Source of the DNA: a bacterium
Lineage (GTDB): Bacteria; Verrucomicrobiota; Kiritimatiellia; CAIVKH01
DNA: 34,477 nt
Assembly (NCBI GenBank): GCA_030432155.1
Contig: JAUIHQ010000007.1
Span: 1-34,477 of the forward strand
Direction of reading: 5' to 3'
Numbering within the stretch: the stretch's first letter is position 1; each line of letters begins with the position of its first letter. A program made the position numbers and the translations under genes. Positions 850-17,815 of this stretch are shown here, piece by piece. Under the pieces are notes generated by a model. That model saw only the letters and a program-made list of their open reading frames with translations, ran no database searches and was not told the origin of the DNA.

Positions 850-3167
850 TGAAACGGAAGCACCAGGTTGTCGGCCACTCCGTCCGCAAGATCGACGCCC
901 TTTCGCTGGCCTGCGGCAAACCCATGTTCGTGCCCGACCTCGTCCCGCCGGGCGCCCTTCACGTGAAAATGCTGTGGAGTCCCCACGCCCACGCAAGGAT
1001 CACCTCGATCGACACCTCGGTCGCCGAGGCGATGCCGGGGGTGAAGCTGGTGCTGCACCACGGCAATGTGCCGCGCGTGGCCCATACCACCGCGGGGCAG
1101 GGGTTCCCCGAGCCGTCGCCCTACGATACCTTCATGTTCGACCACAAGGTCCGGTTTGTCGGCGACCGGGTCGCGGCGGTGATCGCCGAGACCCCGGAGC
1201 AGGCCGCCGCCGCGGTCGGGGCCATCAAGGTGGAGTACGACATCCTGGAGGCGGTTCTCGATCCCCATGATGCCGATCGCGAAGGCGCCCCGGTGATTCA
1301 CGACCAACCGGAAACCCACGTCCCGATTCCCGTGCCCTACGAACCGGAGAAGAACGTGGCCGCGCGGGTGGGGATGGATATCGGGTCGATCGATGACGCG
1401 ATGGCCGCGGCCGATGTTTCCCTTGATCACACCTACGCCACCCATTACGCCCAGCATGTCCCGATGGAGCCGCACGTTGCATTTGCCGAACCTGCGAACG
1501 ACGGGCGCATCACCATCGTCACCAGCACCCAGGTTCCGTTTCACGTACGGCGCATCATCGCCCAGACCCTTGAGATTCCGGTGAGACAGCTCCGGGTGAT
1601 CAAGCCGCGGATCGGCGGCGGGTTCGGGGTGAAGCAGGAGATCCTGCTCGAGGATGTGGTTGCGCTCGGTGCGATACGGACCGGCCGCCCGGTGTACTGG
1701 AAATACACCCGGGCCGAGGAATTCATCAGCGCCCGCACTCGGCATCCCATCGAGACCCGGCTCCGCATGGCCGCCACGAAAGACGGCGTGGTGACCGGGA
1801 TCGGGATGGACTGCCTCTCCAACACCGGGGCCTACGGCTCCCATGCCCTGACCGTGGTCTGCAACGCCGGCAGCAAAATGCTGCCCCTGTACCGGTCGCC
1901 CAACATTCACTTCACCGGGACCGCGGTCTATACCAACCTGCCGGTCGGCGGGGCCTACCGCGGTTACGGCGCCACCCAGTCGTCGCTTGCCGTCGAGTGC
2001 ATGGTGGATGAGCTGGCGGAGAAGCTGGGGATGGATCCGCTGCAGTTCCGCTTGAAGAATCACATCCGCAGCGGCGAGACCTCCCCGGTATTCCGCGCCC
2101 TTGGCGAGGGCAAGGCCGGGGTTGAGCAGTCGATCGGAAGCTGCAAGCTCGAACAGTGCATCAAACTCGGGGCGAAGGAGATCGGCTGGCGACGGCGCGG
2201 CCGGCCCGAAAACAAGAAGGGCCGGTACCGGACCGGGATCGGGATGGCGGCGTTGATGCAGGGCTCGAGCATTCCCGAGATCGATATGGGCGCGGCCTCG
2301 ATCAAGATGAACGAGGACGGTTCCTTCAACCTGCTCATGGGGGCTACCGATCTCGGGACCGGCAGCGATACCGTGCTCGGCCAGATTGCGGCCGAAGCCC
2401 TGAGCACCACCATCGACAAAATCCTGGTCTACAGCTCCGACACCGACATGACCCCGTTCGATGTCGGCGCCTATGCCTCCAGCACCACCTACCTCAGCGG
2501 GTCCGCGGTGCGGAACTGCGCGGAGAAGGTGCGGAAGCAGATCCTCAAGGTCGCGGCCTCCATGCTGGACTGCAAGGTCGGCGAGCTCGCGATCGCAGAT
2601 GCGATGGTCGCAAAGAAGGACGGCACGGCATCCGTATCCTTTGCCGACGTGGCCACCCACTCCATGTACGCCTCCGACCAGCATCAGATTGGCGACATGT
2701 CCTCCCACATCACTCACAAGTCGCCGCCCCCGTTCTCCGCCCATTTTGCCGAGGTGGAGGTGGATACCTGGACCGGGGCGGTCAAGGTGCTGAACTACGT
2801 GGCCGCCGTCGACTGCGGGACCGCCATCAATCCGAAGCTGGCTGAGGGCCAGACCGAGGGCGGGGTGCTGAACGGCATCAGCTTCGCCCTGACCGAGGAC
2901 TACCGGTTCAACAGCCGCGGGGTCATGCAGAACGCATCCCTGATGCATTACAAGATCTTCTCCATGCGCGACAAACCCCCGATCAAAACCATACTCGTGC
3001 CGAGTTACGAGAAGACCGGCCCGTTCGGGGCCAAGAGCGTATCCGAGATATGCATCAACGGCCCCATCCCCGCCATCGCCAACGCAATCTACAACGCAAC
3101 CGGCGTCCGCCTGTACCGCTCCCCCTTCACCGCGGAAACAGTGTGGCGGGCGTTGGCGGAGGGATGA
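849..3167 (+). CDS. Molybdopterin-binding catalytic subunit of xanthine dehydrogenase family
   Basis: GGGFGVKQE, AYRGYGATQSSLAVECMVDELAEKLGMDPLQFRLKN, VDCGTAINPKLAEGQ motifs; overlaps the preceding gene. Confidence 0.93.
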   Translation: MKRKHQVVGHSVRKIDALSLACGKPMFVPDLVPPGALHVKMLWSPHAHARITSIDTSVAEAMPGVKLVLHHGNVPRVAHTTAGQGFPEPSPYDTFMFDHKVRFVGDRVAAVIAETPEQAAAAVGAIKVEYDILEAVLDPHDADREGAPVIHDQPETHVPIPVPYEPEKNVAARVGMDIGSIDDAMAAADVSLDHTYATHYAQHVPMEPHVAFAEPANDGRITIVTSTQVPFHVRRIIAQTLEIPVRQLRVIKPRIGGGFGVKQEILLEDVVALGAIRTGRPVYWKYTRAEEFISARTRHPIETRLRMAATKDGVVTGIGMDCLSNTGAYGSHALTVVCNAGSKMLPLYRSPNIHFTGTAVYTNLPVGGAYRGYGATQSSLAVECMVDELAEKLGMDPLQFRLKNHIRSGETSPVFRALGEGKAGVEQSIGSCKLEQCIKLGAKEIGWRRRGRPENKKGRYRTGIGMAALMQGSSIPEIDMGAASIKMNEDGSFNLLMGATDLGTGSDTVLGQIAAEALSTTIDKILVYSSDTDMTPFDVGAYASSTTYLSGSAVRNCAEKVRKQILKVAASMLDCKVGELAIADAMVAKKDGTASVSFADVATHSMYASDQHQIGDMSSHITHKSPPPFSAHFAEVEVDTWTGAVKVLNYVAAVDCGTAINPKLAEGQTEGGVLNGISFALTEDYRFNSRGVMQNASLMHYKIFSMRDKPPIKTILVPSYEKTGPFGAKSVSEICINGPIPAIANAIYNATGVRLYRSPFTAETVWRALAEG

Positions 3168-3286
3168 AGGCGGAAGTATGAAGGATGAAAGGCCGGTAGG
3201 GCGGCCGCCGCGAGTGGACGACAAAGATTGGGACAAAGGTCCCGACAAAGTTTTTCGAAACCCCCGATTCTTGTCGATTCCTTTGG

Positions 3287-3319
3287 CCTCCCCGGAGGGG
3301 CAACCTCCCGGTTGCCCGC
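3287..3319. repeat. Double-hairpin intergenic repeat copy (CCTCCCCGGAGGGGCAACCTCCCGGTTGCCC)
   Basis: Shares GGAGGGGCAACCTCCCGGTTGCCC with copies at 17707 and 17783; contains CAACC-tccc-GGTTG hairpin. Confidence 0.8.
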
Positions 3320-3577
3320 AGACTGTTGAAAAACCCTCCGGAACGATCTTTCAAGCGTACCTATCATCATCAGTGACAATCGTTGGAGGCACGGTGCCCT
3401 CACCGTGCATATGTGCATCTTCGCCATGAAAAGGATCGTCATCCCCGGTGGGGGCATCCGCCTTCGCGCCTGGCGCTGCGGCGAGACGCCGCCGGGGCTC
3501 CATCAACTTGTATGTGTGCGTGATTCAGCCCGGTGATATGTTTTTCAACAGCCTCGGGGCAAGCTCCCGGTTGCCCG

Positions 3578-3713
3578 CGGGGGAGGGGATCGGGTGTTTG
3601 CGCGGTTGTTCGTAAGGGAAGAGAACCACGGAGATCCCAGAGGTACAATCCCGCCCACCCCCTCGTAATCGTAATCATAATCCTCATCTTAATCGAAGAA
3701 GATCAGGGTCGGG
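3578..3713. repeat. Left copy of ~135 bp intergenic direct repeat
   Basis: GGGGGAGGGGATCGGGTGTTTGCGCGGTTGTTCGTAAGGGAAGAGAACCACGGAGATCCCAGAGGTACAATCCCGCCCA...GAAGAAGATCAGGGTCGGGA, near-identical to 4708-4840. Confidence 0.9.
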
Positions 3714-3813
3714 AGTAAGGGTCAGGATCATGATCTTCAGACCCGCGGCATATAGTTGAAGTCGTGCTTATTCGTCCCAAATGCTGTTGAGAGCGCGGGG
3801 TGGCGCAGCCACT

Positions 3814-4071
3814 CTACAGATGGAGTATCCGCCAGTCACCGGAAGACTCAGAAGTCATTTCGACACCTTTCGGCCCGAGGATGCCCATCGCGAGATAATC
3901 CATGGCCCATCCGTGCATATTCTTTGGAGGCGGCCGTCCGAAATACTCTTCAAAAGTTTCTACAGAACCTTCATAGCTGATGGGAGAATGAGCCATGTCG
4001 GATTCGAACTCGGCCCGGGCAATGACGACATCTCCATTCGGAAATCGGTAGGTATTCTTGAACGTCTTCAT
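3814..4071 (-). CDS. Hypothetical 85-aa protein
   Basis: ORF MKTFKNTYRFPNGDVVIARAEFESDMAHSPISYEGSVETFEEYF...; GAGGAG Shine-Dalgarno 5 nt upstream (plus-strand 4077-4082). Same orientation and directly downstream of the Cas9-like fragment. Confidence 0.6.
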   Translation of the reverse strand: MKTFKNTYRFPNGDVVIARAEFESDMAHSPISYEGSVETFEEYFGRPPPKNMHGWAMDYLAMGILGPKGVEMTSESSGDWRILHL

Positions 4072-4130
4072 TTGTACTCCTCAAAGATCCTCAAGACTGA
4101 AAAGAGCATCGCCGAAATTGTTCTGTCACA

Positions 4131-4247
4131 CTACGTGAATAAAAGTATGACCCCTTTCTTCAGCAGGGACGTCCGAGTGCCGTTGCGTTCAATGAGTGCC
4201 CAGCCAATGCTGTTGGTTCCAAGGTCAAGACCAAGCGTTTTGATCAT
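4131..4247 (-). pseudogene. N-terminal fragment of a type II Cas9 (RuvC-I motif), 38 codons then TAG
   Basis: Manual reverse complement: ATGATCAAAACGCTTGGTCTTGACCTTGGAACCAACAGCATTGGCTGGGCACTCATTGAACGC... = MIKTLGLDLGTNSIGWALIERNGTRTSLLKKGVILLFT*. LGLDLGTNSIGWA is the Cas9 RuvC-I signature; GGAGG Shine-Dalgarno at 4255-4259. Confidence 0.8.
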
Positions 4248-4581
4248 TTCTATGCCTCCGGTGAAGATTGATGAGGCATGATAGGCAGGGCGTCGTTGCG
4301 TGAAAAGCAAACTTAGCGGCGCCGATTGTTTCCATGAGTGAGTCTCTTCACGACGGGCAAGCAGTCTGTGTGGATCATCCCTGATAGCGATTTAACATAT
4401 CATGCCCCCTATGTCGTGGTAGGTCCATGTATGCGCTGCAATATATCGTGATGGCATACAACATGCCGGTGGTCATCGTGTCGGTAAATTCCCGATGCTG
4501 GAATGGGAAAAGATATAAAATTATGTCGGCTCGCGGGGCCGCTCGCCCTCCCGGGTGGATGATCGAGACACGTGACCACCA

Positions 4582-4730
4582 CCAACCCGATCCCCTCCCG
4601 CGGAGGGGTGCCCGGAAGGGCGGGGTGGGTTTTGGGGTTGGCGGAAACATGCCGGTTATGCGGAACGAACGACCCACCCCGTCTCCGCTTGCGCGGAGCC
4701 ACCCCTCCGGGGGAGGGGATCGGGTGGTTG
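4582..4730. repeat. Imperfect palindromic element (about 150 bp)
   Basis: Outer arms CCAACCCGATCCCCTCCCGCGGAGGGGTG (4582-4610) and CCACCCCTCCGGGGGAGGGGATCGGGTGG (4699-4727), inner arms CGGGGTGGG / CCCACCCCG. Confidence 0.75.
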
Positions 4731-4840
4731 CGCGGTTGTTCGTACGGGAAGAGAACCACGGAGATCCCAGCAGTACAATCCCGCCCATCTCCTCGTAATC
4801 CTCATCCTCATCCTCATCGAAGAAGATCAGGGTCGGGATG
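4708..4840. repeat. Right copy of ~135 bp intergenic direct repeat
   Basis: GGGGGAGGGGATCGGGTGGTTGCGCGGTTGTTCGTACGGGAAGAGAACCACGGAGATCCCAGCAGTACAATCCCGCCCA...GAAGAAGATCAGGGTCGGGA. Confidence 0.9.
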
Positions 4841-5078
4841 ATGAGGCGGTGTGATCGCTATTAAGGTCGCAAATCTGATTCTTCCAGAGAAAGCCCGCAT
4901 AGCGCACGAATCATCACGAATCCGGGGTGGGCTTGAGCGGAACACATGCCGTCGTTGCTGATGAGGTCATGTTCGGATCTCGTTCTCTTCTTTGTGCCTC
5001 GCAGGACTCGGCGAAGGCGCTTCGTTGTCTCCTCGCGATCGATCCTGTTTCCGCAGCGGAGGCTGGAGTGGCGCCCGT

Positions 5079-6056
5079 TCACGGGGCGAGGGCGTTTAAA
5101 CGATCCTCGTACCGTCTCAGATAGTCCTTGCACGCTTCGGCGCTGAGGAAGCTACGCTCGACGAGTTGACGCACCTCGTCCAGCTTTTCTGAAAAGCGGT
5201 CGATGAGCGTACCGGCAAAGTCCGAATTCATCCCGAACTTCCCGGCGAGCAGCAGGAAATCTTCGCGGCCCGGGAAGCCGTTATTCTGAAAGAAGGCGGT
5301 ATCGTCGTCGGTAAACAGATCCAGCGCGCAGCGTGCTTCGTTGGGCATATGCAGGGATGTACAGAGCAGATCATAGGCGGGCGTCAGCAGGTAGTCGCGC
5401 ATCGGACTCTGGTGCAGCGAGAAGTTCTTGAGGTGCGCATCGCCGTTCGACACCGCGTAGTTGAACAGGTGCCTCAAGTACAACTTTTCCAGCTCAACCC
5501 GGGCCGCGGAGCAGAATCGGCGAAGCAGCACGCCGGTTTCTTCCATGGTCGCGTCGTACTTATAGTTTCGGCCGTGCGTTTCCTCGCTTCGGTTGGACAA
5601 CTGGCAGAAGTCTTCCTGCGGAATCTTCGTCCCATCCGCCGCCCGGTCAAACCGCCGGACCAGGTAGGCGGGTTCCCCATCCTTCAACTCAACCAGGGCG
5701 CACGGCGGAGTCGCGATGCCGAATACCTGGGACGCGATCTGCATTGTGACATGCTCGTTCGCCGGGACATCTTCCCGGAACGCAAGGGAGGGGATCGAGG
5801 GAATCGGCTTCAGGATGAACTCGCCGTCGCTCGTGGCAGGCAAAAGTTTCCCCCGCTCGAACCTGAGCGACAGCTTGTCTTGAATGCCCGATATCGAGAG
5901 ATGTTCCGCATCTTCGGCGCGGCGCGTGATGATCTGATCATGGGTGATATCCAGCCGATGCGGCAAGGACCGTTTTCCGCCGGACAGCCGGCGCGCCGCC
6001 GCAGGTGCATACCCGTCCCGCTCGATGGTTCTGAGGGTGGATCGGCAGCAGGGCAT
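5079..6056 (-). CDS. hipT: HipT-like serine/threonine kinase toxin (HipA-family kinase lacking the N-subdomain)
   Basis: SISGIQDKLSLRF Gly-rich loop, FILKP, SNGDAHLKNFSL catalytic loop, LTPAYDLL metal-binding motif; 325 aa; ATG overlaps the TGA of the preceding HipS-like ORF. Confidence 0.88.
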   Translation of the reverse strand: MPCCRSTLRTIERDGYAPAAARRLSGGKRSLPHRLDITHDQIITRRAEDAEHLSISGIQDKLSLRFERGKLLPATSDGEFILKPIPSIPSLAFREDVPANEHVTMQIASQVFGIATPPCALVELKDGEPAYLVRRFDRAADGTKIPQEDFCQLSNRSEETHGRNYKYDATMEETGVLLRRFCSAARVELEKLYLRHLFNYAVSNGDAHLKNFSLHQSPMRDYLLTPAYDLLCTSLHMPNEARCALDLFTDDDTAFFQNNGFPGREDFLLLAGKFGMNSDFAGTLIDRFSEKLDEVRQLVERSFLSAEACKDYLRRYEDRLNALAP

Positions 6057-6379
6057 CAGCCGTGCTCCTCATGAACGGTCACCGCGCCGACCGTGTCGTC
6101 ACCGGCGGTCCGAATGAGCCGTCCGAAATGATCCTCTTCATCCAGCTTCAGCTTGCGGCACTGTTCCTCCTTCAATGCGCCTTCAGCCAGCAGGCCGAAG
6201 AAGAAAGGAAAGAGGACCCTGGATTCCATCGGTTCGCTCCGCCTGGGAATCGTCAGGCTGATCCCAGGGGCGTCGGGGTCGGCGAGGTATTCCGGGAGGT
6301 AGGTGAAGCGATACCCCTCCTCCGTCTCTTCCAGGATCCCGGCCGGCCTCCGATTGAACTGAACGAGCGCCCTACGCAT
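6056..6379 (-). CDS. hipS: HipS-like protein (detached HipA N-terminal subdomain 1)
   Basis: MRRALVQFNRRPAGILEETEEGYRFTYLPEYLADPDAPGISLTIPRRSEPMESRVLFPFFFGLLAEG resembles the HipA N-terminal subdomain, here as a separate ORF between HTH and kinase genes. Confidence 0.87.
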   Translation of the reverse strand: MRRALVQFNRRPAGILEETEEGYRFTYLPEYLADPDAPGISLTIPRRSEPMESRVLFPFFFGLLAEGALKEEQCRKLKLDEEDHFGRLIRTAGDDTVGAVTVHEEHG

Positions 6380-6599
6380 CGTCTGCTCCGGACGGCAGCT
6401 CTTTCAGATTCGTCTGCAGCTCGAGGCCGAGGACATCCATGACCTTTTCAAGCGTCTGAAGGGTCGGGTTCCCTTTTCCTGATTCAAGGTCGCTCAGGGC
6501 ATGAACCGAAATCCCGGCGATCCGGGCCAGGTTGCGCTGATCGACCCCCAGCAGCTTCCGCCTCACGCGAATCGACTCTATGACGCCTGTAGTTTTCAT
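6372..6599 (-). CDS. hipB: HipB-like HTH (XRE family) antitoxin/repressor
   Basis: MKTTGVIESIRVRRKLLGVDQRNLARIAGISVHALSDLESGKGNPTLQTLEKVMDVLGLEL; HTH_3 pattern. Start at 6599 preferred over the ORF-track start at 6671 because of the promoter position. Confidence 0.85.
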   Translation of the reverse strand: MKTTGVIESIRVRRKLLGVDQRNLARIAGISVHALSDLESGKGNPTLQTLEKVMDVLGLELQTNLKELPSGADDA

Positions 6600-6731
6600 T
6601 GAAGTAAATATATTTGGTAACACGGATCGATGCAAGCAGACTTGCTCACAAATATTCGTTATGATGAACATATCGCACTTAGCCGGAAGCTGAGGGGCAT
6701 ATTTTTATACTACATATTCATTATAATGAGT
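6600..6731 (-). promoter_or_regulatory. Predicted hipBST promoter and operators
   Basis: Minus strand TTGCAT (6635-6630), 17 nt, TATATT (6612-6607), 7 nt, ATG at 6599. Related palindromic boxes ATTCGTTATGATGAAC (6654-6669) and ATTCATTATAATGAGT (6716-6731). Confidence 0.55.
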
Positions 6732-17706: not shown

Positions 17707-17738
17707 CCCCTCCGGAGGGGCAACCTCCCGGTTGCCCT
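17707..17738. repeat. Double-hairpin intergenic repeat copy
   Basis: CCCCTCCGGAGGGGCAACCTCCCGGTTGCCCT; perfect 14-bp palindrome plus CAACC-tccc-GGTTG. Confidence 0.9.
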
Positions 17739-17782
17739 CACCGCGCAAATATGCATGTCCGTCATCAGGCACAATGTATGCC

Positions 17783-17815
17783 CCCCTCCGGAGGGGCAAC
17801 CTCCCGGTTGCCCTC
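17783..17815. repeat. Double-hairpin intergenic repeat copy
   Basis: CCCCTCCGGAGGGGCAACCTCCCGGTTGCCCTC, identical core to the copy 76 bp upstream. Confidence 0.9.

What the first reader, a model, noticed from the sequence alone, without database searches (positions are those of the whole stretch)
4131..4260. Cas9 N-terminal (RuvC-I) fragment with intact Shine-Dalgarno, hidden in an intergenic region
Seen directly: minus-strand 4247->4131 encodes MIKTLGLDLGTNSIGWALIERNGTRTSLLKKGVILLFT*, with GGAGG 7 nt upstream. Family knowledge: LGLDLGTNSIGWA..., followed by a K-x-GV-hydrophobic strand, is the Cas9 RuvC-I start (catalytic Asp in LGLDLG). Inference: this is the 5' stub of a cas9 gene whose rest is deleted. 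It could be a scar of CRISPR loss, or a short peptide that is still translated. It is below the supplied ORF track's apparent length cutoff, so automated annotation would likely miss it.
Basis: partly seen in the sequence, partly recalled or inferred. Interest (0 to 1): 0.8.

Follow-up and report, generated by a model that had tools for sequence, protein, structure and literature searches.

The report
Stub of a lost Cas9 gene
A 38-codon reading frame in an uncultured Kiritimatiellae-type bacterium is the first ~33 codons of a CRISPR cas9 gene, broken by a frameshift and followed by no more cas9; it is most likely a dead scar of CRISPR loss, an ordinary kind of gene decay that I also found in two related genomes.

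Summary
The first ~33 codons are a Cas9 N-terminus: TIGR01865 E=4.6e-7; a Cas9 N-terminal profile gives E=2.5e-14, against 0.02 for the best frame in 30 shuffled windows. The nearest intact Cas9 N-terminus is 75% identical. After Lys-Lys-Gly-Val the frame shifts: the next Cas9 residues (H-T-F) appear to be read one frame over, followed by a stop. So the 'hydrophobic strand' ILLFT is out-of-frame sequence, not Cas9. No other cas9, cas1 or cas2 was detected in the 86%-complete assembly, and there is no CRISPR array in the window. The stub lies in a 1.9 kb, repeat-rich, lower-GC intergenic region between a xanthine-dehydrogenase-type gene and a HipBA-like operon, bracketed by a 137-bp direct repeat (88%). 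Its neighbourhood is not shared with the relatives fetched. Two other genomes of the phylum hold longer cas9 stubs: 270 codons with no array nearby, and 196 codons with an 18-repeat array but no cas1 or cas2 between. A third holds an intact cas9-cas1-cas2-array. These look like stages of cas9 decay. Best reading: a frameshifted, truncated cas9 pseudogene. A functional peptide is not excluded, but nothing supports it.

The parts
4149..4247 (-). In-frame Cas9 N-terminus, codons 1-33 (MIKTLGLDLGTNSIGWALIERNGTRTSLLKKGV), including the RuvC-I motif with its Asp
   Evidence: Translation; TIGR01865 E=4.6e-7 over residues 4-34; own N-terminal profile E=2.5e-14; 75% identity to the nearest intact Cas9 N-terminus, L029
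4141..4149 (-). Probable continuation of cas9 in another frame (H-T-F), i.e. a frameshift equivalent to loss of one base at the GV/H codons; stop TGA four codons later
   Evidence: DNA comparison with L029-L032; the H-T-F score at that exact place is reached by 0.035% of window positions; similarity beyond it is not significant (7% of positions)
4131..4148 (-). Out-of-frame tail of the ORF (ILLFT*), not native Cas9 sequence
   Evidence: No intact related Cas9 has it; they read H/Q-x-F-x-x-G-V
4255..4259 (-). Shine-Dalgarno-like GGAGG, 7 nt before the ATG
   Evidence: Read directly
3814..4071 (-). 85-codon ORF downstream of the stub, its start preceded by GAGGAG; orphan, probably not Cas9
   Evidence: No Pfam, NCBIfam, PHROGs or PDB match; only a weak match to a pseudopilin-like protein in the phylum (E=0.007)
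3578..3714 (.). Left copy of a 137-bp direct repeat bracketing the stub region
   Evidence: 88% identical to 4708-4838; only partial copies of 26-48 bp elsewhere in the assembly
4708..4838 (.). Right copy of the same direct repeat
4588..4738 (.). Dispersed repeat, 89% over 151 bp to another contig of the same assembly; overlaps the start of the right direct repeat
   Evidence: L022 = G000:C193

Best explanation
A pseudogene remnant. An ancestor carried a cas9 gene here, probably of the cas9-cas1-cas2 (II-C-like) arrangement seen in the nearest intact relative. All but the first ~35 codons was lost, with a one-base frameshift at the junction, leaving the ribosome-binding site, start codon and RuvC-I segment. 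It does nothing now; at most it is read as a short, non-functional peptide. Shown: Cas9 identity of the stub, loss of frame after codon 33, and no detected cas9/cas1/cas2 elsewhere in the assembly. Inferred: that the loss was by deletion, possibly helped by the repeats around it, and that the gene was acquired horizontally (the region is 50% GC against 61% for the window).
For: Cas9 models are the best matches and the profile score is far outside chance. All 29 fetched phylum hits are Cas9 N-termini, most in frames of 900-1485 codons. The frame is lost exactly at the GV before the conserved H-x-F-P-K-G-V. A full-length intact Cas9 finds only this stub in the assembly; cas1 and cas2 are not found although the controls ring. 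Comparable truncated cas9 stubs occur in G146 (270 codons, then an unrelated spermidine-synthase-like gene) and G269 (196 codons, then an 18-repeat array with 66-bp period and no cas1/cas2 between), while G009 keeps cas9-cas1-cas2-array. GC is about 50% around the stub, and GC3 0.61 against 0.72-0.86 for most neighbours.
Against: The surviving codons are as similar to intact Cas9s as intact ones are to each other (0.75 against 0.71-0.77 at best) and keep start, ribosome site and frame, which could hint at constraint, although a young pseudogene gives the same picture. No sister genome with an intact cas9 at this very locus was found, so deletion in place is not shown. The assembly is a fragmented MAG.
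Confidence: 0.88

Rival explanations
1. A short peptide still made and used, for example interfering with Cas9 or regulating something by RuvC-I mimicry.
For: Intact ribosome site, ATG and an uninterrupted 38-codon frame; Cas9-like residues well kept; a second small ORF with its own ribosome site follows.
Against: The last residues are out of frame relative to Cas9; the promoter scan over the region finds one weak site, no more than chance; no conserved stand-alone 38-codon version was seen among 388 genomes of the phylum; without a CRISPR system in the genome there is no obvious target.
Confidence: 0.05
2. Assembly or sequencing error: the gene is intact in the cell and the contig is chimeric or has a base error here.
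For: MAG of 466 contigs, 86% complete; one-base frameshift is a common error type.
Against: A base error cannot explain the absence of the following ~1000 codons: no Cas9 signal downstream or on any other contig. The stub is inside the window, ~4 kb from the nearer contig or window end, not at a break.
Confidence: 0.05
3. A captured fragment: the 5' end of a foreign cas9 was inserted here as part of a small mobile or recombined segment, so a full system never existed at this locus.
For: Lower GC than the surroundings; bracketed by a 137-bp direct repeat; no shared neighbourhood with relatives.
Against: No integrase, transposase or terminal structure recognised in the 1.9 kb region; stubs elsewhere in the phylum look like deletion remnants, one still with its array.
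Confidence: 0.15
4. Not Cas9 but RuvC, RuvX or another RNase-H-fold protein.
For: Weak matches to RuvC and RuvX and to phage RuvC-like resolvases.
Against: Cas9 scores clearly higher on the same sequence, and the segment from residue 20 to GV matches the Cas9 group specifically.
Confidence: 0.02

Closest known systems
Cas9 of the intact cas9-cas1-cas2-array locus in G009 (L067) and Cas9s at L029/L030
   Same: N-terminal ~33 residues: 67-75% identical, same RuvC-I motif and the same Gly-Val before the H-x-F-P-K-G-V stretch
   Different: Those proteins continue for 914-1267 residues as read on the fetched contigs; the stub ends after 33 matching codons and has no cas1, cas2 or array beside it
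Truncated cas9 remnants in G146 (L151) and G269 (L152)
   Same: 5' part of cas9 with start codon kept, the remaining cas9 not found in the fetched surroundings
   Different: Longer (270 and 196 codons); G269 keeps an 18-repeat array next to it
RuvC / RuvX Holliday-junction nucleases
   Same: Same RNase-H-fold first strand and catalytic Asp motif
   Different: Lower scores than Cas9 on this sequence

Membership tests
Cas9 (type II effector), as descent of the fragment | RuvC-I N-terminal motif in Cas9 context | tested here: met
   TIGR01865 E=4.6e-7; N-terminal profile E=2.5e-14 against 0.02 at best in random windows
Cas9 (type II effector), as a working protein | Bridge helix, REC lobe, HNH, RuvC-II and RuvC-III | tested here: not met
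   ORF ends after 38 codons; an intact Cas9 finds nothing else in the assembly; TIGR01865 finds only the stub and a weak HNH-region match
Type II CRISPR-Cas locus | cas1 and cas2 nearby or in the genome | tested here: not met
   No match to PF01867 or PF09827 in the assembly, controls positive; assembly 86% complete
Type II CRISPR-Cas locus | CRISPR array | tested here: inconclusive
Type II CRISPR-Cas locus | tracrRNA | tested here: inconclusive
   No Rfam match in 3000-5600 and no match to the G009 repeat, but the lost system's own repeat is unknown
Pseudogene | Disrupted frame and loss of most of the gene relative to intact homologues | tested here: met
   Frameshift after codon 33 and no following Cas9
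Pseudogene | Relaxed selection on the remaining codons | not testable with these tools
   No same-genus genome with the stub is held; the 8 same-family genomes lack it at this place

The most novel reading that the evidence does not exclude
The 38-codon frame is an expressed RuvC-I micropeptide kept after CRISPR loss, with a role such as dampening Cas9 of incoming elements.
Probability: 0.03. Interest if true: 0.75.

Novelty: new member of a known kind. Interest (0 to 1): 0.2.

Why it matters
It documents loss of a type II CRISPR system in an uncultured Kiritimatiellae-type lineage from a remnant so short that gene callers miss it. With the stubs in G146 and G269 it suggests that cas9 5' ends often outlast the rest of the locus, so short RuvC-I frames could be used to count CRISPR losses across genomes. 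For the single locus the consequence is small.

Tried and rejected
Rejected: RuvC/RuvX or another RNase-H-fold protein (scores); remaining cas9 elsewhere in the assembly (the second weak TIGR01865 match, C335, lies in the HNH part and resembles generic HNH matches seen in many relatives); the downstream 85-codon ORF as part of cas9 or of a known defence family (viral contigs none; plasmids one weak chance match). PF18541 as a search model was uninformative because the controls did not ring either. Synteny: the xanthine-dehydrogenase-type gene is found in relatives, but its neighbours differ and no cas9 lies beside it. The stub was too short for a collection scan. First run of the frame statistics timed out and one script had a syntax error. 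Literature searches for cas9 remnants or Kiritimatiellae Cas9 gave nothing pertinent.

Full report
Observation. The minus-strand frame 4247..4131 is present as described and reads MIKTLGLDLGTNSIGWALIERNGTRTSLLKKGVILLFT*, with GGAGG at 4259..4255 and a 7-nt spacer. It lies in a 1.9 kb gap between a xanthine-dehydrogenase-type gene ending at 3167 and a HipA-like gene starting at 5079.

Identity. NCBIfam gives Cas9 (TIGR01865) E=4.6e-7 and RuvC only 0.0048; PADLOC gives five Cas9 models first; phmmer against the PDB lists mainly Cas9 chains, best E=0.017, which is weak alone. A profile I built from Cas9 N-termini of related genomes scores the frame at E=2.5e-14; the best frame in 30 random windows of like composition is 0.02 and the next best real frame in the window 0.49. 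Among 388 genomes of the phylum, 51 besides this one match at E<=0.01. I fetched 29 of these and all begin a Cas9 N-terminus. The other 22 were not read; their frames are given as 171 to about 1300 codons.

Where the homology ends. Related Cas9s read ...KGV-H-x-F-P-K-G-V-G-D.... The window reads KKGV-ILLFT-stop in frame, but H-T-F directly after GV in another frame, with a TGA four codons on. The H-T-F score at that exact place is equalled by 0.035% of window positions, not counting the choice between two frames; what follows is not significant (7%). The simplest account is a one-base frameshift at codon 33-34, with Cas9 similarity lost about three codons later. This part is probable rather than proven.

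The rest of the system. A full-length intact Cas9 finds only the stub in the assembly. cas1 and cas2 are not found, while positive controls ring. The assembly is 86% complete in 466 contigs, so absence is likely but not certain. The window holds no array. The whole assembly could not be scanned for arrays.

Surroundings. The stretch 3715-4587 is 50-52% GC against 61% for the window; GC3 is 0.61 for the stub and 0.57 for the next ORF against 0.72-0.86 for the neighbours measured. It is bracketed by a 137-bp direct repeat, 88% identical, 3578-3714 and 4708-4838, which has only short partial copies elsewhere in the assembly. A dispersed repeat lies at 4588-4738. These repeats could have promoted loss or insertion; that is inference. 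The 85-codon ORF at 3814-4071 is an orphan.

Host and synteny. The nearest named relatives of the adjacent xanthine-dehydrogenase-type protein are Verrucomicrobia, Lentisphaerae and Kiritimatiellae MAGs at 68-71%, so the host is probably of the Kiritimatiellae group. The fetched relatives share the xanthine-dehydrogenase-type gene (and some the frame opposite its start) but not the region downstream. No same-genus genome was available, so an empty or intact version of this site could not be examined.

Comparison cases. G009 keeps cas9 (1267 aa), cas1 (TIGR03639, type II), cas2 and an array. G269 has a 196-codon cas9 start followed by an array of about 18 repeats at 66-bp spacing, with no cas1 or cas2 between. 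G146 has a 270-codon cas9 start followed by an unrelated spermidine-synthase-like gene, no array in the 5.6 kb held; that contig ends 2.8 kb after the stub. Together with the window these look like successive stages of loss, though they are separate genomes, not one lineage.

Conclusion. The finding is a frameshifted, truncated cas9 pseudogene. Conservation of the surviving codons (0.75 identity to the nearest intact Cas9, where intact ones have 0.71-0.77 with each other) fits a fairly recent loss and does not by itself argue for function.

Noticed in passing
L152 7982-10124 (G269): A cas9 start of 196 codons next to an intact-looking array of about 18 repeats (66-bp spacing) with cas1, cas2 and the rest of cas9 missing between.
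   Followed up: partly
L151 2007-2819 (G146): A 270-codon cas9 5' stub directly followed by a spermidine-synthase-like gene; another cas9 remnant.
   Followed up: partly
window 3578-3714 and 4708-4838: 137-bp direct repeat (88%) 1.13 kb apart, bracketing the stub and an orphan ORF; nearly specific to this locus in the assembly.
   Followed up: partly
window 4588-4738: Dispersed intergenic repeat with an inverted-repeat core, 89% to another contig of the assembly (L022).
   Followed up: no
window 5079-6671, minus strand: HTH regulator, HipA N-terminal (Couple_hipA) and HipA C-terminal domains as three separate adjacent ORFs: a split HipBA-like toxin-antitoxin operon.
   Followed up: no
window 3292-3320, 17712-17740, 17788-17813: A short G+C-rich palindromic intergenic repeat (CCGGAGGGGCAACCTCCCGG) in three copies.
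   Followed up: no
window 3814-4071, minus strand: Orphan 85-codon ORF with a good ribosome site and lower GC3 than its neighbours; no family match.
   Followed up: partly
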